Below the pieces are notes generated by a model. That model was not told where the DNA came from, did not search any database, and worked only from the letters and a program-made list of their open reading frames with translations. This document shows, one piece after another, positions 3,181-50,823 of a stretch of 64,000 bases of DNA. Each line of letters starts with the position of its first letter. Positions within the stretch are counted from its first letter, which is position 1. The translations under genes were made by a program, and so were the position numbers. This DNA is from Alitta virens (Eukaryota > Annelida > Polychaeta > Phyllodocida > Nereididae), in contig OW028583.1 in NCBI GenBank assembly GCA_932294295.1, forward strand, positions 3,663,501 through 3,727,500. Reading direction: 5' to 3'.

Positions 3181-3264
3181 CTGAAAGAAAAAAAAAGAGA
3201 ATGATAAAATGCACATGATGTGGTGGGTTGAGAGTCAGTCTCAATGCTTTGCACATTTTTGCTG

Positions 3265-11529: not shown

Positions 11530-11563
<34 letters not shown>

Positions 11564-20430: not shown

Positions 20431-20690
20431 TTCACAGCCTCAATATAACGTTGATTCACCTCAAGGAAATACTTGTCAGTTGTAGCAATATCGGCTTCTG
20501 CATCTTCAGGCAAAGCATAATGATACTTGTCGTGTGCCTCATCGAATTTATTGAATGCTTCTTTCATTTTCTGGAAATGAGATGTGATGGCGTCTGCATC
20601 TTCTTCAGCTAGAAGTCGCTCTAAGGCAATGAAGTGTTTACTAACCACTCCTTTGTAGGCAGATCTTGACTTTTTATCTTCATCAGACAT
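20337..20690 (-). pseudogene. BEL/Pao gag N-terminus
   Basis: A 117-codon frame starts with ATG at 20690-20688, about 60 bases inside the 5' LTR, and is rich in charged helical sequence (MSDEDKKSRSAYKGV). It overlaps the next frame by 94 bases in a different register and ends ISQMR. BEL gag proteins usually have about 100 more residues of DUF1759 between these two parts (L-P-x-L-x-L-P-x-F-x-G-D type), and I do not see them. An internal deletion is the simplest reading; programmed frameshifting is a weaker alternative. Confidence 0.75.
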
Positions 20691-20751
20691 GTTGACTTGT
20701 GTTGGTGAGTTGGCAGTTGTAGAGATGTCTTTGCCTGACGTATTTATTCAC

Positions 20752-25200: not shown

Positions 25201-26161
25201 TTCAAAGAGATTCGTCAATTTTTCTCAATTTTCACCAAGCAAACTGCCTTAACTTATGTACGTTACAGATCCCAATCTCCTGTCAGTCATTGACATAATT
25301 TTTTCACCTAATTCGAGTATGTGTTCGCTATATATATCTGGCATTGTTAAAGCTAGTCATATATAGGTCTAGACGGCTGATATAATGAATTAAGTCCAAC
25401 AGTTATCAATAATTGATAATCTAAACCCTTATTTTTCAAACTACCTTTCCCTTTGATCATTTATTTAGAACCCTAACTGTACATCATATGTTCATTTTGT
25501 TTTCAGATATTTCGTTTTACACGAATTCGGTGGCATTTATGCCGATTGCGACATGGAATGCTTCAAACCTCTGGATGATCCGATTGGTGAACACAATTGC
25601 ATTCTGAGTACAGAACCAGCAGTTCACCGATTATTCATAGTTTCGCAGCGAAAAAACCCATATCTTATATCAAACGCATTTATGGCATGTCGGCCGAGAC
25701 ATCCGTTTTTTAAACATACGATTGACTTCCTTGTAAACAGCAATAGCCGCCAGTCGGAGGATCCCGTTTTCAGTACCGGTCCTGTTATGGTGGCAGAATC
25801 TTACAAAATATTTACTGAAATGTATACTGACGATGTGGTGCCATTTGTACCAGATGAAGAACTGTTCCTACCAAAGTTCGACCCAAGGCGGATTGCAGAA
25901 TTCCGAAAGCTGTGCAGACATTTCAAAATGATTAGGTTTAAACGGATGAAAAACCCTGAAATGCTCGATAAGTCGTGTAAGCCTTTGCTCGATAATGTTA
26001 ATGATGAAGATGTGTACAATGGCCCTACTGACAAGTCATACACAGTTCACCATTGGACGAATTCTTGGGCTGGTAAACTTGGTGAATATTACCTTCAGGG
26101 ATTAGAAAACAAACGCGCTACTTTCAATGTCAAAAACTTATATAAAGCTGATACAAATTAA
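22216..26161 (+). CDS. Gene B: GT32-type glycosyltransferase, type II membrane protein
   Basis: Exons: 22216-22240, 23829-24220, 24776-24930, 25507-26161, splicing to 408 residues. Exon 1 is a 25-nt micro-exon (MMKTKTVD plus one base) with a perfect GACG/GTAAGT donor, and the split Val matches the other genes. The anchor is about residues 9-27 (AIKLCAIISLVIVLEW). Exon 2 ends IPLIIHQTHKN; exon 3 ends I-Q-R-S-D-A-F-R (D188). Exon 4 carries GGIYADCDMECF (DXD 204-206), STGPVM, LCRHF and KSCKP cysteines, and HHWTNSWAG. All hallmark residues are present, so catalysis is expected. AATAAA at 26184 lies 23 bases after the stop. Exon 2 is preceded by nine tandem copies of its own acceptor; using the copy two units up (AG at 23764-23765) would keep frame and add 21 mostly hydrophobic residues at the anchor. 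A MITE lies in each of introns 1 and 2. Confidence 0.9.
22580..22710. repeat. GATA microsatellite in intron 1 of gene B
   Basis: Imperfect (GATA)n/(TAGA)n tract with interspersed GGTA and CATA units. Confidence 0.8.
23379..23497. mobile_element. CCCAGATAGCATTCC-family foldback MITE, intron 1 of gene B
   Basis: About 119 bp with ends CCCGTATAGCATTCCAAATC and the inverted GATTTGGAATGCTATCTGGA-type end, flanked by AA on each side. The same family occurs at 24612-24719, 27528-27650, 35008-35122, 36812-36930, 37514-37632, 43505-43620, 45268-45386, 45975-46093 and 54713-54843, plus fragments near 10281 and 36705. Confidence 0.85.
23575..23828 (+). repeat. 31-32 bp minisatellite of nine units carrying the exon-2 acceptor of gene B
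   Basis: CAGTTGCTAT recurs at 23575, 23606, 23638, 23669, 23700, 23732, 23763, 23794 and 23826. Each unit is TTACAG, then TTGCTAT, then an AT-rich spacer. The last unit is the acceptor of exon 2, so the amplified unit spans the intron-exon boundary. Confidence 0.9.
24612..24719. mobile_element. CCCAGATAGCATTCC-family MITE, intron 2 of gene B
   Basis: About 108 bp, bounded by CCCTGATAGCATTCC and GGAATGCTATCTGGG, with a TA duplication on both sides. Confidence 0.85.
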
Positions 26162-29715: not shown

Positions 29716-29946
29716 ATGAGATTATATTTCAGAACTTTATTACATAGAATGAGAAGTAATCGAGTACCGATGAAACTACTGTACCGAGGTGAGGAAACTG
29801 TTATTTTTATGTATGAATGCATGAATGACAGAACGACAAAATATTGCACAGTTCCTAGTAGCAGTAGCAGTAGTAGTAGTAGTAGTCGTAGTAATAGCAG
29901 TTGTAGTAGTAGCAGTAGCAGTAGTAGTAGTAGTAGTAGTAGTAGC

Positions 29947-29978
<32 letters not shown>

Positions 29979-32900
29979 CAGTAGTAGTAGTAGTAGTGGT
30001 GCTGGTATTAAATATGACTGAATTATAAACACTAAATAAAACACATACATAACATGGAATATACTTTAGTAAATATATTGTATCTGGAAATACTAAGACA
30101 GGAATATGGAAATTAATATGATTGTAAAAATATATTACTTTCAAACTCAAAATATTCCTTGACCTTAAATAAAAAAAACTGTTCTTACAGAAATTTTCTT
30201 ACAAAAAAATGTTCTCCTCGTATAATATTCACAAGCAATTTTGCATTTTGAAATTAGACCAAAGTACAACAAGCTGCTATTTAAAAAAAAAATGCACTGC
30301 TCTACCTGTCATTTTTGATATCATTGCAGTGATCTTTCTGTTACTTTAGTTAGAGTAAAATACAAAAAACATATACAAAACACGTATTAGACAATTACAG
30401 ATAGATAGATAGATAGGTAGATAGATATATTTATAGATAGATAGATATATTTATAGATAGGGAAAGTGTAGCCCTCTAAGGCAATTTCTTGCCACTATCG
30501 AGGGTTGATTGATGAGGTGAGAGAGAGGAGTCCACCCATGTTGCACATTTACCCCATGAGTGGAATCTTTTACTTGCCTCAGCATAGACACTGAGTACAA
30601 GGGACCGCCAATTTAACGTTTCATGTGATCGCCATCTAGCTGGGATGTAGCTCATAAGTGCCTGTACATGATCATGAAAGGTTGCCCTGGCCTGGGATTG
30701 AACCCGGGTCCTTCAGAGGAGCAGGCGAGCGTCTTACCACTTGACCACCCACCTAGGGTGGGTCATATAAATAATTCCCGATAAATATGCTGGGCTTCTC
30801 TTCATTTTGTTTCAATATACAATAGACCAGAGGTGGAAAAATGTGTCTTTCTGAATCCCACATAATTGCATGTTGAACGACTCAATATTCACAATGACTA
30901 TAAATATAATCAGCCATCTCCAGCGCAATATCATGTGGTTTTACGAAATGTTTTCATTAATCAGTTATTCCGTAAACTATCACAAATCGATGAATTAAAA
31001 AAACATAACTTTTTTTTTCCTTTTGAACAGTCACTCAAGTTGTCTTAAAGATACTCGTCATTGTGCTGATGGTTACGACAATCAGACAACTGTTGCCAAG
31101 AACCGGCTTTTCGGGTGATCCATCAGGACATGAAGTGAATGATCAACTGGAAACCGTGAAGACTGTCAAGGGTGTATTAAGGAATTTAGCGAGGAATAAT
31201 AAAAAAATTGATAACCCCAGCAAAAGATCAAACTTGGATGTTGATGTTCGGCCAAAGACTATTTTCGGACCGAAAGAGGAGTACGATGATCTTGCGGAGT
31301 TTGACACCCTCGAAGAAATTCCTCTCATCTTTCATCAAACATACACAGACGACAGTGTACCTATTGTCTACAAGGTAATGAAATATGTAAAATGTTGGTC
31401 ACATATTGTAACAGGCATACCTCAGATCACATGCAACATCGATCAGGCGACAAACCCATATCGGCTGATGATGGCCTTCAGCGTCAGGATATAACCAACA
31501 AAAATGTTAGCTTACTCCTGACTGTGAAGGATATAACTAACATATACTCCATTAGGCATATTTACAAATGTTGTGATTGTTTGTTTGTTTTTACTGCCTT
31601 TATTACACAAGACAAGTTCAGTTTGCACTCAGGAAGGAGTTAACTAACATTTTCGTTGGTTATTGCCCACTTGGAACAATAGGGAAACTGTCTAAGTAGA
31701 GTATGAAGCTAGTTATAATGCATTCTTCATTAGCTAGGCTGGAAGTCACTCACATGGTAGTTAAATGGGGGATGTTCTGGTCAACAGGGGGAGCTACATG
31801 CCAGTCCTATAACCTTTTTTTGATGATCATACACTCAGGTCATTGAGTATGTTGATGACTTCGCAAAAGTTGTGAGCATCAGTCCCTCATTGTTGTTGAT
31901 CTTTCGCAGTGTCTATGTCATGTATGATGGGATGGGAGTAGACCAATGTGGCAAATGTCTAACATTATGCAGACTGGATTATGAAACATCTCAATATTAT
32001 GTCTTGCTCTAGCAGCTGGTCATATTAGTCGACTTAGCACCAAATCAGTAAAATTGAGACAATAGAAACAAAGGATTTTTTTTCTTTTTTTGCATTATAG
32101 ACATGGATGCAGTCTTGGCTTAAGTTTCATCCCAACTGGCAATATTGGTTTTGGACTGATGAAGACATCAACAAATTCATTACAACCAGATATCCGGATT
32201 TCAAGGATATCTTCTACGACTACAAGGATAATATCCAGAGATCAAATGTATTCAGGTAATACATTCACAATGTCATTTATCTCATCCTCAACGTTAAAAG
32301 CATTTGTACGTATTTATAGGGTGAAGTAAGGGGAACTGAACCAGAAAGACAGGTTGGTCACATAAAAAGTATGATATAAATGGTTAAGGCATCTACCAAT
32401 TCAATATTGGCCAGCTCTGCTGAAAGTGTGATGTTTGATCCCTGGCCCATGCAGGCACTCTTTATGAGCTACATCCCAGCAGGATGTCGATCGTATGAGA
32501 CATTCAATTGCAGGTGCCTTGTATTCAGTATCTATGCTGGGGACAAGTAAAATATCCCACCTATGGGGTTAATGTGTAACATGGTGGACTCCTAAGCCTT
32601 ATCATCTCGTATCATTGTATCTATCTCTCGCTGCATAACATTCTCACTTTATGTTTCCATTAGATCCTCACTTTATGTTTGCATCAGAATCAGATCCTCA
32701 CTTTATGCTATCTATTAGATCCTCACTTTATGTTTCCATAAGATCCTCACTTTATGTTTTAATTAGATCCTCACTTCATGTTTACATAAGATACTCACTT
32801 TATATTTCCTGAAATCCTCACTTTATGTTTCCATCGGATCCTCATATATTTTGTGTTTCCTGAAATCCTCACTTTAATTTCCATTAGATCCTCACTTTGT

Positions 32901-33690
32901 GTTTCCATTTGATCCACAATCATGTTTCCTAGATCCTCACTATTTGTTTCTGTTAAATTCTTTACTACTTGTTTCCAATAAATCCTCACTTTATGTTTCC
33001 AATGTTTCCATTTGATCCCCTTTTATCTTGATTAATACAATGCAATGTTTTCTTTCCAGATACTTTCTAATGCATGAATTTGGTGGATTTTATATGGATC
33101 TTGGCATGGAATGCCTAAGAACTCTGGATGACCTTGCTATTGAAAACAATTGTCTCCTAACTTCAGAACCTGTATTTCACCGTTTGTTGACCCCATCACA
33201 CAAGAGCCATCAGCATTTCGTATCAAAAACTTTCATGGCTTGTCACCCTAGGAGTCCATTTTTCAAACATGTCATCGGCTTTTTGGTTGATGACAGAAAA
33301 AACCAACTTGCTGATCCTGATAGAAGCACTGGAACTATAATGATGGAAGATGCTTTCACTGATTATCGATTGAAAAAACCTTTGGAAGAGGTTCCAAAAT
33401 TATCAGAATCAGAATTATTCATTCCGATGGTGGATAAACGTAAAACTGGCTCGATCGAAACGTTTTGTAAAGAGTTGACCATTGGCAAATGGGATCATCA
33501 AAGCTTGGACACACTTACGGGCCTTCAACAATGTTATAAATATCTTCAAGATGGTGCAAACCTAATAACTGGGAATACGTATACAGTTCATCATTGGGCT
33601 AATTCATGGACTGATGATGATGGGAAAAGTATTGAAGGAGAACAAGAAACTGTCTTATTTAATATCAAGGATTTGCTAAATGATGTATAA
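29716..33690 (+). CDS. Gene C: GT32-like protein with degraded active site
   Basis: Exons: 29716-29788, 31031-31374, 32101-32255, 33060-33690, giving 400 residues. Exon 1 (MRLYFRTLLHRMRSNRVP...) is basic and ends with one base of a split Val codon; an in-frame ATG at 29749 is an alternative start. The anchor VVLKILVIVLMVTTI begins just after the junction. Exon 2 ends IPLIFHQTYTDD. Exon 3 keeps QYWFWTDED but ends R-S-N-V-F-R, with Asn188 where A, B and F have Asp. Exon 4 has GGFYMDLGMECL, so DXD is D-L-G (204-206), and STGTIMM, with Thr283 for the Pro of TGP. Cysteines and HHWANSW (368-374) remain. Membrane location is expected; sugar transfer is doubtful. AATAAA lies at 33904-33909. A 90-bp relic of exon 4 sits in the 3' UTR. 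Confidence 0.9.
29858..30000 (+). repeat. (AGT)n microsatellite in intron 1 of gene C
   Basis: Trinucleotide AGT/AGC tract 70 bases after the exon-1 donor, shared with genes D (38046-38190) and E (46506-46665) at different lengths. Read through from exon 1 it would encode polyserine, but the donor and conserved downstream exons show that it is intronic. Confidence 0.9.
30385..30760 (-). mobile_element. SINE (type 2) in intron 1 of gene C
   Basis: Inverted copy with the B box (inverted GGGTTCAATCCCAGG) near 30690-30710 and a GATA-rich tail at the left end. Equivalent copies in D (about 38700-39065) and E (about 47185-47560) show that insertion preceded the duplication. Confidence 0.75.
32385..32615 (+). 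mobile_element. SINE (type 2) in intron 3 of gene C
   Basis: Truncated copy: GGTTAAGGCATCTACCAATTC head, CATCCCAGCAGGATGTCGATC body, GGGGTTAATGTGTAACATGG near the end. Shared with D (about 40830-41060) and E (about 49515-49685). Confidence 0.7.
32645..33020 (+). repeat. 24-bp minisatellite in front of exon 4 of gene C
   Basis: Imperfect tandem units of the type TTTCCATTAGATCCTCAC plus TTTATG fill the distance to the exon-4 polypyrimidine tract. The array differs in length in D (about 41090-41580) and E (about 49720-50160). Confidence 0.85.
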
Positions 33691-33730
33691 ACAAACTCAC
33701 TATGAGCTTCTGTTTCTTGCTGGATATTGC

Positions 33731-33812
33731 TTATCCTGATAGAAGCAGTGCAACTATAATGATGGAAGACGCTTTCACTGGTTATCGGTCAAAAAAAATG
33801 CTTTGGAAGAGC
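33731..33812 (+). pseudogene. Relic fragment of exon 4 in the 3' region of gene C
   Basis: About 82 bp downstream of the stop repeats the exon-4 stretch around the TGT loop (TCCTGATAGAAGCA.. ACTATAATGATGGAAGA.. TTTGGAAGAG) with frame-destroying changes. A shorter relic occurs at the same place after gene D. Not translated. Confidence 0.8.
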
Positions 33813-35007
33813 TTCAGAACAACAGCTACACCCTCCCTGTGCGGAGACATTTGACATTTATTTCATCATTTGGTCAATGTAATAGCAATTTTGAATTTGT
33901 CTAAATAAATGATTTTTTCAAATTTGTAAAACTTTGTTAATATCTCACCATATGCCATTGCAAATAATTATCGATGTAAAAGATGAAAGCAATGAAACAT
34001 AGAATATAGGCTCAAGGTGTCAAATCTATATTGCTAGCTGTAAGCCATTTACTATGGAGAAAGCCAGTCTACAGATAAGATCTTAAGAATTTTTTCTTTG
34101 CAAGACAAATTTAAGTTACTTTTCCAAATATATATTCTCTGTCATCATGATATCAGGTCAATTAAGAATAAAGCATTATGAAAATAAAAAATAGCAGTTA
34201 AGATTTGTAGATAGGAGTAATTAAACATAAATTTGGAGTGTGTATAGCCCTTTTAACACCAAGCCTTAACATCTCATCATTATGTCTGCCTTTGGCAGTG
34301 TTTCATACTAAGCTTCAGAACAACAGCTACACCCTCCCTGTGGGGAGACATTTGACACTTATTTTTGAGAGATAAGAGAAGTTAGCTCAACTAAAACCAC
34401 ATATTTGATTAATGTTAGGGTTTATATTGTTTGATTTGGAGGCAATGGAAGGGTGTTATAGGCACTTAATGTTTCCATTAATTCTATAATGGTGTTCTAG
34501 GCCGACTGTTTTTGGCGATAAGTATAAGGGTGTTATAGGTAGATTGTTTGATTATTTGGAGGAAAATATAATATAATGGCAGATTGTTTGATTTCAAAGT
34601 TTAGGTTGAAGGGTGTGATATGCAGATTGTTTGATTTGGAGGCAGGTTGAAGGGTGCGATATGCAGATTGGTTGATTGGGCAGGTAGAAGGGTTTCATTG
34701 ACAGATTGCCGGAATTGGAGGCAAGTAGAAGAATGTTTATGATGAGGTTTAGCTAAGTCTAGCTAAGTCTAGCTTGCAAGAGATGGATCATAAGGGTGTG
34801 TTGTTTCAATTGTAGGCATGTAGAAGGGTTTTATGGATGGATTGTTTGAGTTGCAGGCAATTAGAATGATGTTTTTCTAGCTCAGTTTAGCTTGCGAAAG
34901 ATTGACCCAGGTGGCATGCCATTTCTGGTCAATCTTGGGTAAACACTGGCCGACATTAACTGATGCAAAGTCAACCATGAGCCAACATGGCCTGACTCTG
35001 TATGTAT
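33813..35007. other. 3' flank of gene C, end of tandem unit 1
   Basis: No gene seen. A segment starting CTTCAGAACAACAGCTACACC occurs twice (about 33812 and 34312), and short GGCAGATTGTTTGATTTGGAGG repeats follow at 34400-34900. The segment is shared with units 2 and 3. Confidence 0.45.
33904..33909 (+). terminator. Polyadenylation signal of gene C
   Basis: AATAAA in TCTAAATAAATG, about 215 bases after the stop. The same signal is at 42438-42443 in gene D. In gene E the equivalent reads AAAATATATG, so that gene probably uses AATAAA at 50979. Confidence 0.5.
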
Positions 35008-36811
35008 AGATAACATTCCAAATAGTTTCAACATCGGCGAGATGTCAGCAATGTTAATACGAGTTGTAACGACAGTGGCCTATATGGTAACAATGCTGGG
35101 CCGCTTTGGAATGCTATATAGGTTTGGGGTCTGAGTATCTATAATCAAACTGGGTATCTATAATCAAACTGGAGATGTTCTAAGCAATGTATTAGTCAAA
35201 ACGCCTATTGGTAAATGTAACATTACCAGACATACTTGGAATCTTATAATTTCTACATCAGAGAGGTTTAACTTCGAATAGAGGGCACCACCTTATGTTC
35301 ATATCTATTGTCACCAGCCTGTAGCAAGGAGTTACTCGACTTTCCCCATTTTCCCCTATTATCATTTGAAAGCGAAGTCTTAACAACTTGGCCAAGTGTA
35401 GTCCAAGTATCCAGTATTTTTCGCACGCTAGGTAGGCTTTGAACTTTTGACACAGCACTCGTGCATTTAAAATAAACTGGTTTACCAGTGCAAATATGAA
35501 GACTCAGCTTATTTGTGTGGCCTTGAAATTTGTATTAGTAAAACTTGTGATTTTGTGATATAGAACTAACAGACATGGAGCTAGTAAGACCTTTAAAATA
35601 CAGGAACGAAATTATTAATCAACTACCCAATAAATGATTAAAGATAATTGACATTGTATGTACTCAGAACACAATGTCATACATATTTTATGTGATGATC
35701 TGCTTCAATAGCTACAACATTGCCCTTTTTTTTCATTTATTTTCTTCTTCTATTTTTCATTTCTTTGCTTCTTCTTATTTTTTAAAGAAAAAAAAAAAGA
35801 AAGAAAAGAAATTTAAGATTTATTTTTTATTTTTTATAAAAGGGATATCTGTGTCAGAAATGTTTATTTGTATAGAAGACATGAAATTTAACAAAGTGGA
35901 CCGTGGATAGTCCCACAAAGTCTATTTTGACCACACCATCAACAATTGCTTATAAATATTCTCAACTCATAGTGCAACATACGTTCCAGCTGTTCAACAT
36001 ACCCTGCAGTCATTCAACATACGTTTCAGCCATCCAACATTCACCCCAGCCATCAAACATACATCCATGCTGGATGACAATGAAGTAGGGCTTCCTGCCA
36101 GGTAACTGTTACAACTGATTGCATTGAAGTGTGGTCAACAGGCCATCAGTCCACTTCCAAGTGTGGTAGGCATGTCACAGTTTTGAACGCATGAGTGCCT
36201 CCCTAATAGGCTAAACTATCTTAATCTGCTGCTTTAAATGAGCTGGTTGATTGCTAGTCAATTATCATTTCATTGAACAGCAAAGTTATACAAGATAAGT
36301 TTTACAATCAGTCATGATGGATGATAAGATTTTAAAACACAGTAATTTATAAGTCGAAGCCCAACTGTAATTGAGACCATAGAAATTCAGTCCATTTCTA
36401 TTTGTGAGCTTGATTGGGGACCACTCAATCATGGTAAATTGTGACATCACCAGGAGACTTTGTCAAGTGGCTGGCTACACTTCATTGTAATCCACTGTAA
36501 AAGGCTGTGACTGTAAAAACCATACAGCTGACCTATATAGCTTAAACATGACCGATCACAGATCTACATGATATCGTCACATTTACTAAAGCCACAACTA
36601 AGTTAGGAGTTTAGCAGCAAAATTTCTGCCCAGCATCGTATCATGCTGGCAACCATCAATACAACATCGCATCTACAATGCCGAAAACGTGCCCATGTAG
36701 TTCCAATTTGGAATGCTATATGGGGCACCAAAGCAGGCGAGCATCTTACCACGAGACCACCCAGCTTTTAGTGATACAGTATACTGTCCATGTAGAAGCT
36801 ACTAAATTATT

Positions 36812-36930
36812 CCAAAATAGCATTTCAAATCAATTCGATGTTGGCACGACATCGGCGATGTGAAAACGATGTTGTAACGACGGTGGCCGATATAGAAAAG
36901 ACGCAGGCCTAATTTGGAATGCTATCTGGG
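36812..36930. mobile_element. CCCAGATAGCATTCC-family MITE upstream of gene D
   Basis: Ends CCAAAATAGCATTTCAAATC and GGAATGCTATCTGGG. Its counterpart in unit 3 is 45268-45386. Confidence 0.75.
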
Positions 36931-37513
36931 AGGACCCAGTACCACAAGAGAATTCTTGATAATTGACACAAATGTGACAGCAATCATTGCCAAGACAACA
37001 CATATTCCTGAAAGTACCTAAAGTGGAAAATACTTGCCACTGAGCCAGCCTTGCCCAAAGTATGCCATTACTGTTTTATCGTTCTCAGATCAGCTGCTGT
37101 CAGCCAATCAGAATGCTTTATGACAAAGTTCTTTTTGGCTAAGTTATTATGAAAAAGTTCTTTTTGGCTAATTTGTTAAGACACAAATATGCATTACCTG
37201 ACAATAGTTAGATATACCCATTATTTAGACTGAAATAGTCTAACAAACATTTCCATGATGTTGCGCTTTGCCTATAGCCTACAGTAGGTTATCAGGTTGT
37301 GGTCAAGTGTGGTCGGATGAGGCTGATCCACCAGAACAGATAAAAGGCTAATGTGGTTTGTTCTACAGTTAATTTTGGTCATAATGAACCCGAAATTCTT
37401 AAAATCTGATGAAAATTTACTAAGTTATTAAACAAAATGTACTATGTAAATTAAATTTTTCCTTATCCCACAAAACTCTATGTTGGACTACTCAACATCC
37501 ACTATTGTTATAA

Positions 37514-37632
37514 CCCAGAAAGCATTCCAAATCGTATCAACATCGGTGCGATGTCCACGATGTTGAAACGATGTTGTACCGATAGCGGCCGACATAGAAA
37601 TTACACTGGCCCGATTTGGAATGCTATCTGGA
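37514..37632. mobile_element. CCCAGATAGCATTCC-family MITE upstream of gene D exon 1
   Basis: Complete copy with AA on both sides, 240 bp before exon 1. Its counterpart in unit 3 is 45975-46093. It lies inside the 1.67 kb missing from unit 1. Confidence 0.85.
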
Positions 37633-37872
37633 AATTACTTCGGAGAACAATAAATTCAATCAACAATCTTTGAGCAAATTATTGTCTCAACAGTTATACT
37701 ATGTCATAACTTTTACAAAGTTTTCTAATATATGATAATTTGTATACAATTTGTTTGTATACATAGTCTGATCTACTTGTTCATTGGTGCGTGATGTGGG
37801 AGTATCTTATACGTTAACGCATAGTGCATATAGGTTCAATAACATTTCTTTTGATAGTAATGTTGTTACATT

Positions 37873-38114
37873 ATGAAATTATATATCAGAACTTTATTAC
37901 ATAGAATGAGAATTAATCAAGTAATGAAACTACTGTACCAAGGTAAGAAAACTTATTTTTCTGTTTGTAATACAACTATAGTCTTCACATGGATGCAAAA
38001 TATGTGTGCATGAATGACAGAATGACAAAATATTGCACAGTTCCTAGCAGTAGTAGTAGTAATAGTAGTAGTAGTATTAGTAGTAGTAGTAGTAGTAGTA
38101 GTGGTAGTAGTAGC

Positions 38115-38146
<32 letters not shown>

Positions 38147-38153
38147 CAGTAGC

Positions 38154-38185
<32 letters not shown>

Positions 38186-41100
38186 AGGTATTATAATAAG
38201 ACCCAATGGTTATGTGATATATTTTTACGAGTTGGGTATTAAATATGACTGAATTATAAACACTAACAGTAGTAAATAAATTAAATTATTACACATACAG
38301 AACATAGAATATTCTTTAGTAAATATCATATCGTATCTGAACTGATCAAGTTGTGGCTATTCAATGGAAAGACTAAGACAGGAATATGGAAATTAATATG
38401 AATGTAAAAATATAGTACTTTCAAACTTAAAATATTCTTTGATCTTAAATTTAAAAAACTGTTCTCACAGAAATTTTCTTAAAAAAAAAAGAGTTCTCAT
38501 AGTATAATATTCAGAAGCAATTTTGCATTTTGAAATAAGACCAAAGTACAGCAAGCTGCTATTTAAAAAAAAAAGAAGCCATTTGATGTGTTATATAATT
38601 TTGCATGCTCCATCTGACACAGTAAAGAAAAACCAAGAAATAAATCAGCTTTTAAAATTAGATACAAAAGATGTATAAAAAACGTATTGGAACAATACAG
38701 ATAGATAGATAGATAAATAGATAGATTTATAGATAGATATGGAAAGTGCAGCCCTCTAAGGTCATTTCTTGCCACTAGCCAGGGTTGATGGATGAGGTGA
38801 GAGAGAGGAGTCCACCCATGCCCCATGGGTGGAATCTTTCACTTGCCTCAGCATAGACACTGAGTACAAGGGATTGCCAATTTAATGTTTCATGTAATCG
38901 CCATATAGCTGGGATGTAGCTCATAAGAAGTAAAAGGGACTGCCAATTTAATGTCTCATCCTAATGACATCCAGCTGGGATGATGCTCATGAAAGGTTGC
39001 CCGGGCCTGGGATTGAACCCGGATCCTTCAGAGGAGCAGGCGAGCGTCTTACCACTAGACCACCTAAATAGGCAGGGTCAGATAAATAATTCCCGATAAA
39101 TATGCAGGGCTTCTCTTCATTTTGTTTCAGTATACAATAGACCAGAGGTGAACGACTCAACATTCACAATGACTATAAATATAATCAGCAATCTACAGTG
39201 CAATATCATGTGGTTTTACAAATGTTTTCATTAATCATTTATTCCATAAACTATCACCAATCGATGAATTAAAAAATAAACTTTTTTTCCTTTTTGAACA
39301 GTTACTCAAGTTGTCTTAAAGATACTCGTCATTGTGCTGATGGTGACAACAATCAGACGACTGTTGCCGAGAACCGGCTTTTCGGGTGATCCATCAGGAC
39401 ATGAAGTGAATGATCAACTGGAAACCATGAAGACTGTCAAGGGTGTATTAAGGAATTTAGTGAGTAATGATAAAAAAATTGATAACCCCAGCAAAAGATC
39501 CAACTTGGATGTTGATGTGCGGCCAAAGACTATTTTTGGACAGAAAGAGGAGTATGATGATCTGACGGACTTTGACATCCTCGAAGAAATTCCTCTCATC
39601 TTTCATCAAACATACACAGATGACAATGTACCTATTGTCTACAAGGTAATAAAATAATATATTATGTAAAATGTTGGTCACATGTTCTAACAGGCATACC
39701 TCAGATCACATGCAACATCGATCAGGCGACAAACCCGTATCGGCTGATGATGGCCAATATTGGTTCGACGCTAATGAAATCTGGAATGCTATTTGGGATA
39801 GACTATGTAACAGTTATATCCTCCATAGTCAAGAGTTAACTAACATTTTTGTTGGTTATATCTCTATGCCTTTGACAATCAGGCGACAAACCCTCATCAA
39901 CTGATGACGGCCTTCGGGGTCGGGATATAACCAACAAAAATGTTACTAACTCCCAACTGTGAGGGATATAACTAACATATACTCCATTAGGCATATTTAT
40001 AAATTTTTGTGATTGTTTCTTTTTACTGCCTTTATCACACAAGACAAGTTCAGTTTACACTCAGGAAGGAGTTAACTAACATCTTCGTTGGTTATTGCCC
40101 AAGAAAAACAGTCTAAGTGGAGTATGAAGCTAATTATAATGCATTCTTCATTAGCTAAGCTGTAAGTCACTCACATGGTAGTTAAATGGGGGATGTTCAG
40201 GTCAACAGGGGGAGCTACATGCCAGTCCTATAACCTTTTTTTGATGACATAATCATACACTCATTGAGTATGTTGATGACATACAAATGTGAGGACCAGT
40301 ACACAGCTCATACTATCATCCCAAAAGTCCCCCATTGTTGTTGATCTTTCGCAGTGTCTATGTCATGTATGATGGAATGGGAGGAAGACGGATGTGGCAA
40401 ATGACTAATATTATGCAGACTGGATTATGAAACATTTCAATATTATGTCTTGCTCTAGCAGCTTGTCATATTAGTCGACTTAGCACCAAATCAGTAAAAT
40501 TGAGACAATAGAAACAAAGGATTTTTTTTCTTTTTTTGCATCATAGACATGGATGCAGTCTTGGCTCAAGTTTCATCCTAACTGGCAATATTGGTTTTGG
40601 ACTGATGAAGACATTAACAAATTCATTACAACCAAATATCCGGATTTCAAGGATATCTTCTACGACTACAAGGATAATATCCAGAGATCAAATGCATTCA
40701 GGTAATACATTCACAATGTCATTTATCTCATCCTCAAAATTAAAGCATTTGTACAAATTTATTGGGTGAAGTAAGGACTGAACCAGAGGGAGAGCTTGGC
40801 CACATAAAATGTATGATATAAATTGTTAAGGCATCTACCAATTCAATATTGGCCAGCTCTGCTGAAAGTGTGATGTTTGATCCCTGTCCCTGGCCCATGC
40901 AGGCACTCTTAATGAGCTACATCCCAGCAGGATGTCGATCGCATGAGACATTCAATTGGAGGTGCCTTGTATTTGGTATCTATGCTGAGGCAAGTTAAAT
41001 ATCCCACCTACAGGGTTAATGTGTAACATGGTGGACTCCTAAGCCTTATCATCTCATATCATTGTATCTATCTCTGGCTGCATTACATTCTCACTTTAAG

Positions 41101-42248
41101 TTTCCATTAGATCCTCACTTTATGTTGCAATAACATGCTCACTTTATGTTTCCATTAAACCTTCAATTTATATTTCCATTAGATCCTCACTTTATTTTTC
41201 CATTAGATCCTCACTTTATGTTTCCATAAGATCCTCACTTTATATTTCCTGAAATCCTCACTTTATGTTTCCATCGGATCCTCACTTTGTGTTTCCATTA
41301 GATCCTCACTTTACATTTCTGGAAATCCTCCCTTTACGTTTCCATTAGATCCTCACTTCGTGTTTCCATTAGATCCTCACTTTGTGTTTCCATTAGATCC
41401 TCACTTTATATTTCTGGAAATCCTCACTTTACGTTTCCATTAGATCCTCACTTCGTGTTTCCATTAGATCCACACTCATGTTTCCTAGATCCTCACTATT
41501 TGTTTCTGTTAAATCCCCACTACTTGTTTCCAATAAATCCTCACTTTATGTTTCCAATGTTTCCATTTTATCCCCACTTTCATATTGATTAATACAATGC
41601 AATTCTTTTTTTTCCAGATACTTTATAATGCATGAATTTGGTGGCTTTTATGTGGATCTTGGCATGGAATGCCTAAGAACTCTGGATGACCTTGCTATTG
41701 AAAACAATTGTCTCCTAACTTCAGAACCTGTACTTCACCGTTTGTTGACCCCATCACACAAGAGCCATCCGCATTTCGTATCAAACACTTTCATGGCTTG
41801 TCACCCGAAGAATCCATTTTTCAAACATGTCATCGGCTTTTTGGTTGAGGACAGAAAAAACCAACTTACTGATCCTGATAGAAGCACTGGAACTATAATG
41901 ATGGAAGATGCTTTCACTGATTATCGATTGAAAAAACCTTTGGAAGAGGTTCCAACATTATTAGAATCAGAATTATTCATTCCGATGGTGGATAAACGTA
42001 AAATTGGCTCGATCAAAACGTTTTGTAAAGAGTTGACCATTGGCAAATGGGATCAACAAAGCTTGGACACACTGACGGGCCTTCAACAATGTTATAAATA
42101 TCTTCAAGATGGTGCAAACCTAATAACTGGGAATACGTATACAGTTCATCATTGGGCTAATTCATGGACTGATGATGATGGGAATAGTATCGAAGGAGAA
42201 CAAGAAACTGCCTTATTTAATATCAAGGATTTGCTAAATGATATATGA
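37873..42248 (+). CDS. Gene D: GT32-like protein with degraded active site
   Basis: Exons: 37873-37942, 39302-39645, 40547-40701, 41618-42248, splicing to 399 residues. Exon 1 (MKLYIRTLLHRMRINQ...) has a second in-frame ATG at 37906 and donor CAAG/GTAAGA. It shares with C and E the substitutions R-S-N (Asn187), D-L-G (203-205; preceded by Val, GGFYVDLGMECL) and STGTIMM. HHWANSW and the cysteines are retained. In exon 4 it differs from C by 17 amino-acid-changing and 4 silent base changes, against 12 and 13 in exons 2 and 3 together (my hand count). It ends in TGA where C has TAA. AATAAA lies at 42438-42443. The reading frame is intact throughout, so it is expressed or very young; transfer activity is doubtful. 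Confidence 0.9.
38046..38190 (+). repeat. (AGT)n microsatellite in intron 1 of gene D
   Basis: Counterpart of 29858-30000, about 105 bases after the exon-1 donor. Confidence 0.9.
38700..39065 (-). mobile_element. SINE (type 2) in intron 1 of gene D
   Basis: Orthologous in position to the copy in gene C, with a partial internal duplication of the block CCAATTTAATGTYTCAT. Confidence 0.7.
40830..41060 (+). mobile_element. SINE (type 2) in intron 3 of gene D
   Basis: Same insertion as at 32385-32615, with a small CCCTGT duplication near the B box. Confidence 0.7.
41090..41580 (+). repeat. 24-bp minisatellite in front of exon 4 of gene D
   Basis: Longer array than in gene C. Units TTTCCATTAGATCCTCAC + TTTATG, with some CTGGAAATCCTCAC variants. 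Confidence 0.85.
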
Positions 42249-42286
42249 AAATACTTACTATGAGCTTCTGTTTCTTGCTGTATATT

Positions 42287-42346
42287 GCTTATAGAAGCAT
42301 GGAAGATGCTTTTATTGATTATTGGTCAAAAAACCTTTGGAAGAGT
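42287..42346 (+). pseudogene. Relic fragment of exon 4 in the 3' region of gene D
   Basis: A deleted version of the relic after gene C: TTATAGAAGCATGGAAGATG, then TTGATTATTGGTC and CCTTTGGAAGAG. Not translated. Confidence 0.7.
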
Positions 42347-42443
42347 GTCAGAACAACAGCTACACCCTCCCTGTGCGGAGACATTTGACATTTATTACAT
42401 CATTTGGTCAATGTCATAGCAATTTTGAATTTGTCTAAATAAA

Positions 42444-43504
42444 TGATTTTTTCAAGCTTGTATAACTTTGTTAATATCTCACCATATTCCATTGAAAAAA
42501 GTTATCCATGTAAAAGATGAAAGCAATGAAACATAGAATATAGGCTCAAGGTGTCAAATCTATATTGCTAGCTGTAAGCCATTTACTATGGAGAAAGCCA
42601 GTCTACAGATAAGATCTTAAGAATTTTTTCTTTGCAAGACAAATTTGAGTTACTTTTCCAAATATATATTCTCTGTCATCATCATATCAGGTCAATTAAG
42701 AATAAAGCATTATGAAAATAAAAATAGCAGTTATGATTTGTAGATAGGAGTAATTAAACAAAAATTTGCAGTGTGTATAGCCCTTTTAACTCCAAGCTTT
42801 AACATCTCATCATTATGTCTGCCTTTGGCAGTGTTTCATATATTCTGGCTAAGCTTCTGAACAACAGCTACACCCTCCCTGTGGGGAGACATTTGACACT
42901 TATTTTTGAGAGATAAGAGAAGTTAGCTCAACTAAAACCACATATTTGATTTATGTTAGGGTTTATATTGTTTGATTGGAGGCCAGTGGAAGGGTGTTAT
43001 GGGCACTTAATGTTTCCGTAATGGTGTTCTAGGCAGACTGTTTGAGTTGTAAGTAGAAAGCTTTTATAGGCAGATTGTTTGATTTGTGGCCTCCGAATTA
43101 CAATTAAGCAATATTGTTTTTTTTTTAAGTTTTTTACTGTTTTGGAAATTAAATGATCTTCTGACTCTTGACTCTAGGGTGTGATATGCAGATTGGTTGA
43201 TTGGGCAGTCTGGTAGAAGAATGTTTATGATGAGGTTTAGCTAAGTCTAGCTAAGTCAAGCTAAGTCTAGCTTGCAAGAGATGGATCATGAGGGTGTGTT
43301 GTGTCAATTGTAGGCATGTAGAAGGGTTTTATGGATGGATTGTTTGAGTTGCAGGCAATTAGAATGATGTTTTTCTAGCTCATTCTAGCTTGCGAAAGAT
43401 TGACCCAAGTGGCATGCCAACTCTGGTCAATCTTGGGTAAACACTGGCTGACATTAACTGATGCAAAGCCAACCATGAGCCAACATGGCCTGACTCTGTA
43501 TGTA
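42444..43504. other. 3' flank of gene D, end of tandem unit 2
   Basis: No gene seen. Matches 33910-35007 with indels; contains GCTAAGTCTAGCTAAGTC repeats near 43237-43270. Confidence 0.45.
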
Positions 43505-43620
43505 TAGATAACATTCCAAATAGTTTCAACATCAGCGAGATGTCAGCGATGTTAATATGATGTTGTAACGACAGTGGCCTATATGGTAACAATGCTGGGT
43601 CACTTTGGAATGCTATATGG

Positions 43621-46333
43621 GTTTGGGGTCTGAGTATTTATAATCAAACTGGAGATGTTCTAAGCAATGTATTAGTCAAAACACCTTTTGGCAAATGTAG
43701 CATACTTGGAATCTTATAATTTCTACATCAGAGAGGTTTAATAGGAATGAACTTCAAATACAGGGCACCACCTTATATTCATATCTATCGTCAACTGCCT
43801 ATAACAAGGAGTTACTCAACTTACCCCATTTTGCCCTATTATCATTTGAAAGCGAAGTCTAAAAACTTGGCCAAGTGTGCCCAAAGTACCCAGACTTTTT
43901 CACACGCTACGTAGGCTTTGAATTTTTGACACAGCACTCGTGCATTTAAAATAAACTGGTTTACCAGTGCAAATATAAAGACTCAGCTTATTTGGGTGGC
44001 CTTGAAATTTGTAGAAGTAAAACTTGTGATAATTGTGATATAGAACTAACAGACATGGAGCTAGTAAGACCTTTAAAATACAGGAACGAAATTATAAATC
44101 ACCTACCCAAAAAATGATTAAAGATAATTGATATTGTACGTACTCAGAACACAATGTCATACATGTTTTATGTGATGATCTGCTTCAATAGCTACAACAC
44201 CGCCCTTTGTTTCATTTCTTTTCTTCTTCTTTTTTCTTTTCTTTGCTTCTTCTTATTTTTTGAAGAAAAAATTTAAGATTTTTTTAAATTTTTGTATCTA
44301 AGGGATATCTGTGTCTACTCAGAAATGTTTATTTGTATAGAAGACATGAAATATAACGAAATGCACCGTGGAGAGTTCCACAAAGTCTATGTTGAAGACA
44401 CCATCAACAATTGTTTCTCAACTCATAGTGCGACATGCGTTCCACCTGTTCAACATTCCCTGCAGTCATTCAACATACGTTCCAGCCATCCAACATTCAC
44501 CCCAGCCATCCAACATACATCCATGCTGGATGACAATGAAGTAGGGCTTCCTGCCAGGTAACTGTTACAACTGATTGCATTGAAGTGTGGTCAACAGGCC
44601 ATCAGTCCACTTCCAAGTGTGGTAGGCATGTCACAGTTTTGAACGCATGAGTGCCTCCCTAATAGGTTAAACTATCTTAATCTGCTGCTTTAAATGAGCT
44701 GGTTGATTGCTAGTAAATTATCATATCATTGAACAACAAAGTTACACCAGATAAGTTTTAAAATCAGTCATGATGGAGGATTAGATTTTAAAACACAGTA
44801 ATTTATAAGTAGAAGCTCAACTATAATTGAGACCAAAGAAATTAAGTCCATTTCTATTTGTGAGCTTGATTGGGGACCACTCAAGCATGGTAAATTGTGA
44901 CATCACCAGGAGACTTTGTCAAGTGGCTGGCTACACTTCATTGTAATCCACTGTAAAAGGCTGTGACTGTAAAAACCATACAGCTGACCTATATAGCTTA
45001 AACATGACCGATCACAGATCTACATGATATCGTCACATTTACTAAAGCCACAACTAAGTTAGGAGTTTAGCAGCAAAATTTCTGCCCAGCATCGTATCAT
45101 GCTGGCAACCATCAATACAACATCGCATCTACAATGCCGAAAACGTGCCCATGTAGTTCCAATTTGGAATGCTATCTGGGGCACCAAAGCAGGCGAGCAT
45201 CTTACCACGAGACCATCCAGCTTTTAGTGATACAGTATACTGTCCATGTAGAAGCTACTAAATTATTCCAAAATAGCATTTCAAATCAATGCGATGTTGG
45301 CACGACATTGGCGATATAAAAACGATGTTGTAACGACGGTGGCCAATATAGAAACGACGCAGGCCTAATTTGGAATGCTATCTGGGAGGACCCAGTACCA
45401 CAAGAGAATTCTTGATAATTGACACAAATGTGACAGCAATCATTGCCAAGACAACACATATTCCTGAAAGTACCTAAGGTGGAAAATACTTGCTACTGAG
45501 CCAGCCTTGCCCAAAGTATGCCATTACTGTTTTATCGTTCTCAGATCAGCTGCTGTCAGCCAATCAGAATGCTTTATGACAAAGTTCTTTTTGGCTAAGT
45601 TATTATGAAAAAGTGCTTTTTGGCTAATTTGTTAAGGCACAAATATGCATTACCTGACAATAGTTAGATATACCCATTACTTAGACTGAAATACTCTAAC
45701 AAACATTTCCATGACGTTGCGCTTTGCCTATATCCTACATTAGGTTGTCAGGTTGTGACAGTTCAAGCGTGGTCGGATGAGGCTGATCCACCAGAACAGA
45801 TAAAAGGCTAATGTGGTTTGTTCTACAGTTAATTTTGGTCATAATGAACCAGAAATTCTTAAAATCTGATGAAAATTTACTAAGTTATTAAACAAAATGT
45901 ACTTCAGCCAATTAAATTTTTCCTTATCCCACAAAACTCTTTGTTGGACTCCTCAACATCCACTATTGTTATAACCCAGAAAGCATTCCAAATCGTATCA
46001 ACATCGGTGCGATGTCCACGATGTTGAAACGATGTTGTACCGATTGGGGCCGACATAGAAATTACACTGGCCCGATTTGGAATGCTATCTGGAAATTACT
46101 TCGGAGAACAATAAATTCAATCAACAATCTTTGAGCAAATTATTGTCTCAACAGTTATACTATGTCATAACTTTTACAAAGTTTTCTAATATATGATAAT
46201 TTGTATACAATTTGTTTGTATACATAGTCTGATCTACTTGTTCATTGGTGCGTGATGTGGGAGTATCTTATACGTTAACGCATAGTGCATATAGGTTCAA
46301 TAACATTTCTTTTGATAGTAATGTTGTTACATT
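43621..46333. other. Region upstream of gene E
   Basis: No exon seen. Matches 35123-37872, with MITEs at 45268-45386 and 45975-46093. Confidence 0.45.
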
Positions 46334-46509
46334 ATGAAATTATATATCAGAACTTTATTACATAGAATGAGAAGTAATCAAGTAATGAAACTACTGTACC
46401 AAGGTAAGGAAACTTATTTTTCTGTTTGTAATACAACTATAGTCTTCACATGGATGCAAAATATGTGTGCATGAATGACAGAATGACAAAATATTGCACA
46501 GTTCCTAGC

Positions 46510-46568
<59 letters not shown>

Positions 46569-46575
46569 TAGTAGC

Positions 46576-46610
<35 letters not shown>

Positions 46611-46635
46611 CAGTAGCAGTAGTAGTAGCAGTAGC

Positions 46636-46667
<32 letters not shown>

Positions 46668-49600
46668 AGGTATTATAACAAGACCCAAGGGTTATGTGAT
46701 ATATTTTTACGAGTGGGGTATTAAATATGACTGAATTATAAACACTAACTGTAGTAAATAAATGATTAAATTATTACACATACAGAACATAGAATATACT
46801 TTAGTAAATATCATATCGTATCTGAACTGATCAAGTTGTGGGTATTCAATGGAAAGACTAAGACAGGAATATGGAAATTAATATGAATGTAATAATATAG
46901 TACTTTCAAACTTAAAATATTCTATGATCTTAAATTTAAAAAACTGTTCTCACAGAAATTTTCTTTAAAAAAAAAAAGAGTTCTCATAGTATAATATTCA
47001 GAAGCAATTTTGCATTTTGAAATTAGACCAAAGTACAGCAAGCTGCTATTTAAAAAAAAAAAGCCATTTGATGTGTTATATAATTTTGCATGCTCTATCT
47101 GACACAGTAAAGAAAAACCAAGAAATAAATCAGCTTTTAAAATTAGATACAAAAGATGTATAAAAAACATATTGGAACAATACAGATAGATGGATAGATA
47201 AATAGATAGATTTATAGATAGATATGGAAAGTGCAGCCCTCTAAGGTCATTTCTTGCCGCTAGCCAGGGTTGATGGATGAGGTGTGAGAGAGGAGTCCAC
47301 CCATGCCTCATGGGTGGAATCTTTTACTTGCCTCAGCATAGACACTGAGTACAAGGGACCGCCAATTTAATGTTTCATGTAATCGCCATATAGCTGGGAT
47401 GTAGCTGATAAGAAGTGCCTGTACAAGGGACTGCCAATTTAACGTCTCATCCTAATGACATCCAGCTGGCATGATGCTCATGAAAGGTTGCCTGGGCCTG
47501 GGATTGACCCCGGGTCCTTCAGAGGAGCAGGCGAGCGTCTTACCACTAGACCACCTAAATAGGCAGGGTCAGATAAATAATTCCCAATAAATATGCAGGG
47601 CTTCTCTTTTGTTTCAGTATACAATAGACCAGAGGTGAACGACTCAACATTCACAATGACTATAAATATAATCAGCCATCTCCAGCGCAATATCCTGTGG
47701 TTTCATGAATGTTTTCATTAATCATTTATTCCATAAACTATCACCAATCGATGAATTAAAAAACAAACTTTTTTTTCTTTTTGAACAGTTACTCAAGTTG
47801 TCTTAAAGATACTCGTCATTGTGCTGATGGTGACAACAATCAGACGACTGTTGCCGAGAACCGGCTTTTCGGGTGATCCATCAGGACATGAAGTGAATGA
47901 TCAACTGGAAACCATGAAGACTGTCAAGGGTGTATTAAAGAATTTAGCGAGTAATAATAAAAAAATTGATAACCCCAGCAAAAGATCAAACTTGGATGTT
48001 GATGTTCGGCCAAAGACTATTTTTGGACAGAAAGAGGAGTATGACGATCTGACGGAGTTTGACACCCTCGAAGAAATTCCTCTCATCTTTCATCAAACAT
48101 ACACAGATGACAATGTACCCATTGTCTACAAGGTAATGAAATATGTAAAATGTTGGTCACATATTATAACAGGCATACCTCAGATCACATGCCACATCGA
48201 TCAGGCGACAAACCAGTATCGTCTGATGACGGTCAATATTGGTTCGACGCTAATAAAATCGGGATGTAACAGTTATATCCTCCATAGTCAAGAGTTAACT
48301 AATATTTTTGTTGCTTATATCTCTATGCCTTTTGACAATCAGGCGACAAACCCTCATCGGCTGATGACGGCCTTCGGCGTCGGGATATAACCAACAAAAA
48401 TGTTACTAACTCCCGACTGTGAGGGATAAACTGAACATATACTCCACTAGGCATATTTATACATTTTTGTGATTGTTTGTTGGTTTTTACTGCCTTTATT
48501 ACACAAGACAAGTTCAGTTTACACTCAGGAAGGAGTTAACTAACATCTTCGTTGGTTATTGCCCACTTGGAACAATAGGAAAACAGTCTAAGTGGAGTAT
48601 GAAGCTAGTTATAATGCATTCTTCATTAGCTAGGCTGGAAGTCACTCACATGGTAGTTAAATTGGGATGTTCTGGTCAACAGGGGGAGCTACATGCCAGT
48701 CCTATAACCTTTTTTTGATGACGTAATCATACACCAGGTCATTGAGTATGTTGATGACTTCACAAAAGTTGTGAGCACCAGTACACAGCTCCTACTGTCG
48801 ACCCAAATGTCCCCCATTGTTGTTGATCTTTCGCAGTGTCTATGTCATGTGTGATGGGACGGGAAGAAGACAGATGTGGCAATGTCTAACACATGTATTA
48901 TGCAGATTTTGTAATGAAGCATCTCATTATTACGTCTGCCTTATATAATAAAGTTGACTTAACACCAAAGCAGTAGAATTGAGACAATAGGAAGGATTTC
49001 AATACCATTGCAAATTCCACATCGAGTGAAAATGTAAAAAGACCGAATCTTATGATAATATTTATGCCAAACAGCGGCCCAAAATATTCCAATAAACAAC
49101 CTATTCATTCAAATTAAAAATCGTATCCGCTTAGCAACATTTTCTGAATCCGCAGGGTACCACATACCAAACTATATTAATCTCGATATAACTATAGTTG
49201 AGTACAGTAATCAAGCTAATAGATTCATCTTAATATTTTGACATGTGGGGTACCAAGTTTTAAGCTGTTTAACATTTTCTTCTTCTTTTTGATCATAGAA
49301 ATGGATGCAGTCTTGGCTCCATTTTCATCCCAACTGGCAATATTGGTTTTGGACTGATGCAGAAATCCACAAATTCATTACAACCAGATATCCAGATTTC
49401 AAGGATATCTTCTTTGACTACAAGGATAATATCCAGAGATCAAATGTATTCAGGTAATACATTCACAACGTCATTTATCTCATCCTCAAAGTTAAAAGCA
49501 TTTGTACAAATTTATTGGTCAGCCCTGCTGAAAGTGTGAGGTTCGATCCCTCGCCCATGCAGGCACTCTTTATGAGCTATATCCAAGCACGATGTCGATA

Positions 49601-50823
49601 GCATGAGACATTCAGTTGGAGGTGCCTTGTATTCGATATCCCACCTATGGGGTTAATGTGTAATATGGTGGACTCCTAAGCCTTATCTCATATCATTGCA
49701 TCTATCTCTGGCGGCATTATATTCTCACTTTATGTTTCCATTAGATCCTCACTTTATGTTTTCATTAGATCCTCACTTGATGTTTCAATTAGATCCTCAC
49801 TTTATGTTTCCATTAGATCCTCACTTTATATTTCCATTAGATCCTCACTTAATGTTTCAATTAGATCATCACTTTATGTTTCCATAAGATCCTAACTTTA
49901 TGTTTTCATTAAACCTTCACTTTATTTTCCATTAGATTGTCACTTATGTTTGCATCAGATCCTCACTTTATGCTATCTATTAGATCCTCACTTTATGTTT
50001 CCATTAGATCCTCACTTAATGGTTTCATTAGATCCTCACTTAATGGTTTCATTAGATCCTCACTTAATGGTTTCATTAGATCCTCACTACTTGTTTCTGT
50101 TTAACTCACACTTAATGTTTCCACTAGATCGTCACTTTAAGTTTCCATTTGATCCCCACTTTCATCTTGATTAAAACATTGCAATTTCTTTTTTCCAGAT
50201 ACTTTCTAATGCATGAATTTGGTGGATTTTATATGGATCTTGGCATGGAATGCCTCAGACCTCTGGATGACCTTGTTTTTGAAAACAATTGTCTCCTAAC
50301 TTCAGAACCTGATTTTCACCGTTTGTTGATCCCATCACACAAGAGCCATCAGCATTTGGTATCGAACACTTTCATGGCTTGTCACCCGAGGAGTCCATTT
50401 TTCAACCATGTCATCGGCTTTTTGGTTGAGGACAAAAAAAACCAACTTGCTGATCCTGATAGAAGCACTGGAACTTTAATGATGGAAGATGCTTTCACTG
50501 ATTATCGATTGAAAAAACCTTTGGAAGAGGTTCCAAAATTAACAGAATCTGAATTATTCATTCCAATGGCTGATAAACGTAAAACTGGCTCGCTCAAAAC
50601 GCTTTGTAGGGAGTTGACCAAATGGGATCAACAAAGTTTTGAAACACTGAAGGGCCTTCAACAATGTTATAAATATCTTCAAGATGGTGCAAACCTAATA
50701 ACTGGGAATACGTATACAGTTCATCATTGGGCTAATTCATGGACTGATGATGATGGGAATAGTATCGATGGAGAACAAGAAACTGCCTTATTTAATATCA
50801 AGGATTTGCTAAATGATGTATAA
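46334..50823 (+). CDS. Gene E: GT32-like protein with degraded active site
   Basis: Exons: 46334-46403, 47789-48132, 49299-49453, 50199-50823, splicing to 397 residues. Exon 1 has a second in-frame ATG at 46367. Like C and D it has R-S-N-V-F-R (Asn187), GGFYMDLGMECL (D-L-G 203-205) and STGTLMM. It goes further from the family pattern: exon 3 reads FWTDAEIHKF where all others have FWTDEDI, and exon 4 has lost two codons (the I-G of TIGKWD). HHWANSW and the cysteines remain. The frame is intact. AATAAA at 50979 is the nearest polyadenylation signal. It is the most diverged of the three and probably the least likely to bind donor sugar in the usual way. Confidence 0.9.
46506..46665 (+). repeat. 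(AGT)n microsatellite in intron 1 of gene E
   Basis: Counterpart of 29858-30000, the longest of the three arrays. Confidence 0.9.
47185..47560 (-). mobile_element. SINE (type 2) in intron 1 of gene E
   Basis: Same insertion as in genes C and D. Confidence 0.7.
49515..49685 (+). mobile_element. SINE (type 2) in intron 3 of gene E
   Basis: Shortened version of the insertion at 32385-32615, lacking the head and part of the middle. Confidence 0.65.
49720..50160 (+). repeat. 24-bp minisatellite in front of exon 4 of gene E
   Basis: Units TTTCCATTAGATCCTCAC + TTTATG with GGTTTCATTAGATCCTCAC variants. As 24 is a multiple of three, one frame stays open (repeating P-H-F-M-F-P-L-D), which is fortuitous. 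Confidence 0.85.

What the first reader, a model, noticed from the sequence alone, without database searches (positions are those of the whole stretch)
29716..50823. Three tandem GT32-like genes (C, D, E) share loss of three hallmark active-site positions
Seen: genes A, B and F keep R-x-D, D-x-D and T-G-P. Genes C, D and E read R-S-N, D-L-G and T-G-T at the same aligned positions, while the frame, signal anchor, cysteines and H-H-W..S-W remain. Known: in GT32 and other GT-A folds the DXD binds the metal and nucleotide sugar, and Asp to Gly should abolish or alter this. Inference: they form a pseudoenzyme family (partner, chaperone or decoy of the active paralogues), or enzymes with changed donor or metal use (the Glu in D-L-G-M-E could substitute). 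The changes predate the two recent duplications, so the altered form itself was amplified.
Basis: partly seen in the sequence, partly recalled or inferred. Interest (0 to 1): 0.88.

Follow-up and report, generated by a model that had tools for sequence, protein, structure and literature searches.

The report
Sugar-transferase trio missing catalytic residues
Three neighbouring animal genes for Golgi-type sugar-transfer enzymes have lost residues that almost all their examined relatives keep at the active site, yet their protein-coding frames still look protected by selection, so they probably do a different or non-catalytic job.

Summary
C, D and E are predicted four-exon genes (29716-33690, 37873-42248, 46334-50823) for membrane-anchored PF04488 / GT32-like proteins (C scanned). 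All three read R-S-N, D-L-G and T-G-T where A, B and F read R-x-D, D-x-D and T-G-P. In 121 database homologues these positions are D 120/121, D 121/121 and P 117/119. Against Och1 they match D171 (modelled on donor-sugar hydroxyls), D189 (second DxD Asp) and P345; equivalents of T103, D139, R174, D187 and H463 are kept. They do not look like decaying pseudogenes: between C and E the introns carry 32 indels that are not multiples of three and the exons none; neutral simulation predicts about six stops, none is present; dN is below dS for C-E and C-D, not significantly for D-E. One correction: D is an E-like/C-like mosaic, so two simple duplications are unlikely. Most likely a selected pseudo- or strongly altered transferase, perhaps a Golgi partner of active paralogues. 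Activity, expression, binding, copy number and orthologues were not tested. A new variant of a known kind.

The parts
29716..29788 (+). gene C exon 1 (cytoplasmic tail, start ATG)
   Evidence: GT donor; phase-1 junction
31031..31374 (+). gene C exon 2 (hydrophobic anchor and stem)
   Evidence: AG/GT sites; Kyte-Doolittle mean 2.22 over 19 aa
32101..32255 (+). gene C exon 3 (core, contains R-S-N at 32239-32247)
33060..33690 (+). gene C exon 4 (D-L-G 33097-33105, T-G-T 33328-33336, H-H-W 33589-33597, stop)
37873..37942 (+). gene D exon 1
39302..39645 (+). gene D exon 2 (E-like half of the mosaic)
40547..40701 (+). gene D exon 3 (R-S-N 40685-40693; C-like half)
41618..42248 (+). gene D exon 4 (D-L-G 41655-41663, T-G-T 41886-41894, H-H-W 42147-42155; C-like half)
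46334..46403 (+). gene E exon 1
47789..48132 (+). gene E exon 2
49299..49453 (+). gene E exon 3 (R-S-N 49437-49445)
50199..50823 (+). gene E exon 4 (D-L-G 50236-50244, T-G-T 50467-50475, H-H-W 50722-50730)
40409..40420 (+). best single breakpoint of the D mosaic (intron 2): left 170 sites D=E / 37 D=C, right 182 D=C / 42 D=E
33727..33815 (+). non-coding copy of an 89-bp piece of exon 4 in C's 3' flank (86.5% identical to 33308-33394); the matching stretch of D's 3' flank lacks parts of it
8780..12321 (+). gene A, canonical paralogue: exons 8780-9174, 11211-11365, 11706-12321 (first Met exon not found)
23829..26161 (+). gene B, canonical paralogue: exons 23829-24220, 24776-24930, 25507-26161 (first Met exon not found)
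58238..61393 (+). gene F, canonical paralogue: exons 58238-58674, 59417-59571, 60757-61393 (first Met exon not found)

Best explanation
C, D and E form one old side branch of an animal GT32-like (Och1/Sur1-type) transferase cluster. It lost the second DxD Asp (metal/diphosphate ligand in GT-A enzymes), the Asp that in Och1 is modelled on the donor-sugar hydroxyls, and the Pro of T-G-P, but kept the membrane anchor, cysteines, the nucleotide-facing residues and the C-terminal His. SHOWN: the losses, their shared ancestry, and constraint on the coding frame since C and E split. INFERRED: the protein no longer transfers sugar by the ordinary metal-dependent route and works as a non-catalytic Golgi partner, for example a hetero-oligomer subunit or substrate-holding regulator of active paralogues such as A, B or F.
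Against: Nothing here shows a partner, expression or inactivity. The first DxD Asp, the Arg and the C-terminal His are kept, which an inert scaffold need not do. GT14 and prokaryotic GT6 lost the DxD and act without metal (passage). D-E taken alone does not reject dN=dS (p=0.19), and its exon/intron contrast is weak (62/1194 against 218/2957). The codon program did not print omega; its direction is taken from dN<dS.
Confidence: 0.5

Rival explanations
1. Active enzymes with changed chemistry: a metal-independent or otherwise rewired GT32 using a different donor, with D187-equivalent, Arg and C-His still positioning the nucleotide.
For: Equivalents of T103, D139, R174, D187 and H463 are kept. 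Loss of DxD with metal-free activity is stated for GT14 and prokaryotic GT6 (passage). Loss of the sugar-OH Asp is what a donor change might look like. A possible local swap, CRPRHPFF to CHPRSPFF or CHPKNPFF, moves a His by three residues.
Against: Two donor/metal Asp and the TGP Pro are lost together; no new acidic residue appears next to D-L-G (the Glu is ancestral); none of 121 held homologues has D-x-G, so no active example is at hand.
Confidence: 0.32
2. Genes on the way out: catalytic loss under relaxed selection with intact frames by recency or by gene conversion.
For: dN/dS 0.44-0.67 among C/D/E is mild constraint; C alone also lost N239; D-E alone p=0.19; D is a mosaic, so exchange between copies has occurred.
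Against: No out-of-frame indel in C-E exons against about 15 expected from the intron rate; no stop against about 6 expected; splice sites all AG/GT. A non-coding copy of an exon piece beside C, and its shortened match beside D, show decay of the same sequence (small control).
Confidence: 0.12
3. Misalignment, sequencing error or wrong gene models produce the apparent losses.
For: Models are by hand, without transcript evidence.
Against: Same three codons in three copies that differ at 4-6% of exon bases; no gaps near the first two sites; shared intron positions and phases.
Confidence: 0.02

Closest known systems
Och1, fungal alpha-1,6-mannosyltransferase (GT32, PDB 9n3s)
   Different: C/D/E lack the D171-, D189- and P345-equivalents; A/B/F keep them
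Animal GT32-like proteins of Lineus, Owenia, Lingula ('CSH1'), Mya, Dreissena
   Same: Same PF04488 core; H-H-W aligned in 36 of 121 held homologues of any source
   Different: All 121 held homologues keep D-x-D
CEECAM1 (CERCAM), inactive paralogue of GLT25D1/2
   Same: Transferase-like paralogue with an incomplete DXD and no activity, several changes together (abstract)
   Different: Another GT family (recalled); no tandem array claimed
GT14 and prokaryotic GT6 (metal-free GT-A enzymes)
   Same: DxD lost during GT-A evolution (passage)
   Different: Other families, described as active
Hoc1, PF04488 protein of yeast M-Pol II
   Same: GT32-type protein described as a component of a polymerase complex (passages)
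   Different: Fungal; its residues were not compared here

Membership tests
PF04488 Gly_transf_sug (sequence family) | whole-protein score above the curated cut-off | tested here: met
   C 60 bits, B 70.9 bits, cut-off 23 (both also pass PF05704 Caps_synth narrowly); A, D, E, F not scanned
PF04488 / GT32 as catalytic family | D-x-D motif | tested here: not met
   D-L-G in C, D, E; D-x-D in A, B, F and 121/121 homologues. So C/D/E are filed as GT32-related, not as GT32 enzymes
PF04488 / GT32 as catalytic family | Asp of (K/R)-x-D-x-x-R-Y (Och1 D171) | tested here: not met
   Asn in C, D, E; D in 120/121 homologues
GT-A fold like Och1 | GT-A fold | tested here: inconclusive
GT-A fold like Och1 | C-terminal His | tested here: met
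   H-H-W in all six; placed at Och1 463 by the end of the aligned range of P0018
Golgi type II transferase | short basic tail and single signal anchor | tested here: met
   C: 7 K/R, 0 D/E before a 19-aa stretch of KD 2.22; D and E: 5 K/R, 0 D/E; hydropathy only, no localisation
Pseudo-glycosyltransferase | no catalytic activity while the protein is kept | not testable with these tools
   constraint shown; activity needs an assay

The most novel reading that the evidence does not exclude
C/D/E are working, metal-independent GT32 enzymes (or nucleotide-sugar-gated regulators) in which D-L-G, R-S-N and T-G-T define a new catalytic solution, amplified and shuffled in an animal genome.
Probability: 0.25. 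Interest if true: 0.7.

Novelty: new variant of a known kind. Interest (0 to 1): 0.45.

Why it matters
PF04488 genes occur in fungi, plants and animals (passage), yet what they do in invertebrates is, as far as I recall, hardly studied. Three copies under constraint that lack residues kept by nearly all examined relatives, beside three canonical copies in one array, give a natural test of whether a GT-A protein can stay useful without its metal site, as partner or as metal-free enzyme.

Tried and rejected
Rejected: alternative alignment with another Asp pair (no gaps near the first two sites). The Glu of D-L-G-M-E as compensation (ancestral). Two simple duplications (D is a mosaic). Dead pseudogenes. 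Loss of N-glycosylation sequons in C/D/E as a signal: 0 in each versus 5, 2, 3 in A, B, F, but 6-8% of shuffles also have none.

Led nowhere: a search with C alone found 2 homologues. A search with C's core, residues 118-232, had 31 candidates and none at E<=0.001. So no D-x-G relative was found; but the search is word-seeded, I saw few named animals in it, and the profile behind one search was built from D-x-D members, so its hits lean towards D-x-D. The genome search for further copies did not complete, so copy number, orthologues and species stay open. Literature searches answered; those for pseudo-glycosyltransferase precedents and lophotrochozoan GT32 failed, so I make no claim that nothing is in print. 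Bacterial toxin glycosyltransferase domains appear in the fold and PDB tables as fold relatives; none was fetched or used.

Full report
Gene models. The window is eukaryotic in character (no tRNA, few long ORFs, intron-split genes). Six genes on the + strand share one exon plan: anchor exon, 155-nt core exon, long last exon, with AG/GT sites and shared junctions. For C, D and E I also recovered the short first exon with an ATG at 29716, 37873 and 46334; for A, B and F it was not found. The predicted C, D and E proteins have 400, 399 and 397 residues and no internal stop. Identity is 89-92% within C/D/E, 45-49% within A/B/F and 36-42% between the groups. There is no transcript evidence.

The three positions. 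R-S-N, D-L-G and T-G-T in C/D/E and the canonical residues in A/B/F were read codon by codon. Against 121 homologues (the 120 listed of 134 hits, plus P0001), the RxD Asp is D in 120, the first and second DxD Asp in 121 each, and the TGP Pro in 117 of 119 with a residue there. Of 15 columns at least 95% conserved (columns filled in at least 100 rows), A, B and F keep all; D and E keep 12, C 11. Of 22 at least 90% conserved: A 22, B 22, F 21, D 16, E 16, C 15. The sample leans towards D-x-D, since the profile was made from D-x-D members.

History. On a tree of 62 rows (quick method; six window proteins and 56 homologues) A/B/F form a clade (96*) and C/D/E another (100*, stem 0.71); both sit with one short unnamed homologue, P0042 (98*). 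D is a mosaic: among 431 informative sites the best split lies at 40409/40420 in intron 2, with 170 D=E and 37 D=C on the left, and 182 D=C and 42 D=E on the right. Flank and exon divergences agree: D-E 0/198 in the 5' flank; in exon 4 C-D 22/631 and D-E 39/625. The order C, hybrid, E is what an unequal crossover in a two-gene array would leave; gene conversion is not excluded. The minority sites lie largely in introns 1 and 3, which hold repeats, so they may be alignment noise or later exchange. The altered form was present before C and E separated.

Selection. C-E differ at 66/1194 exon and 286/2516 intron positions, C-D at 52/1200 and 239/2648, D-E at 62/1194 and 218/2957. For C-E the introns hold 45 indels, 32 not multiples of three; exons hold 2, both in frame. 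By intron rate about 15 out-of-frame indels would be expected. Introns 1 and 3 hold simple and 24-bp repeats, which may inflate this, but intron 2 alone (11 in 714 bp) gives no lower rate. Neutral simulation from the C and E coding sequences gives a mean of 4.6, 6.0 and 6.9 stops at 7.5, 10 and 11.4% divergence, and a stop-free pair in 0.9, 0.2 and 0% of 2000 runs. Nei-Gojobori: C-E pN 0.045, pS 0.098, p=0.0015; C-D p=0.031; D-E p=0.19. For the three genes together a free omega fits better than omega 1 (GY -2077.94 against -2080.12; MG -2077.16 against -2080.42; p 0.037 and 0.011); the program did not print omega, and the mosaic D breaks the single-tree assumption. The constraint is real for C-E but mild. 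An 89-bp piece of exon 4 copied into the 3' flank of C, with a shortened match in D's flank, shows the same sequence decaying where it is not coding.

Reading. A constrained protein without the second DxD Asp and the sugar-hydroxyl Asp is best explained as a pseudo- or strongly altered transferase. I favour a non-catalytic Golgi partner (0.5) over a metal-free or re-targeted enzyme (0.32), because two acidic donor-site residues and the loop Pro changed together and no new acidic neighbour appears. CEECAM1 (abstract) is a close conceptual precedent, and Hoc1 (passages) is a PF04488 protein in a complex. The partner step is inference, and so is Golgi location, which rests on layout and relatives.

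Limits. The host species is unknown; named animal homologues (Lineus, Owenia, Lingula, Mya, Dreissena and a rotifer, Adineta) suggest a lophotrochozoan, but no close relative was found. Copy number in the genome, orthologues, expression and activity were not tested.

Noticed in passing
15881-20747 (- strand): BEL/Pao-type retrotransposon between genes A and B: of its frames four were scanned and gave DUF5641, integrase zinc-binding, Peptidase_A17 and aspartyl protease matches; it is broken into several frames.
   Followed up: partly
33727-33815 and 42253-42394: An 89-bp piece of exon 4 recurs in the 3' flank of C; the matching stretch of D's flank lacks parts of it; none was detected in E's flank.
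   Followed up: partly
32613-33001, 41034-41556, 49644-50232: Tandem repeats of 24-bp period in intron 3 of C, D and E.
   Followed up: no
29814-30131, 38012-38314, 46494-46796: Trinucleotide-type low-complexity arrays in intron 1 of C, D and E that read as long Ser/Val/Leu/Thr runs.
   Followed up: no
30535-30657, 32454-32586, 40900-41031, 47309-47421, 54558-54709, 58795-58949: Dispersed repeat of about 60-130 bp in both orientations, perhaps a SINE-like element.
   Followed up: no
29716-50823 (C, D, E proteins): No N-glycosylation sequons, against 5, 2 and 3 in A, B and F; weak by shuffling.
   Followed up: yes
exon 4 of C, D, E (33060-33690, 41618-42248, 50199-50823): CHPRSPFF / CHPKNPFF against CRPRHPFF in B: a His conserved in 113 of 121 homologues is Ser/Asn in C/D/E while a His appears three residues earlier; possible local compensation.
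   Followed up: no
2471-3430 (- strand): 319-codon open frame rich in Pro/Ala/Thr repeats, no Pfam match.
   Followed up: no
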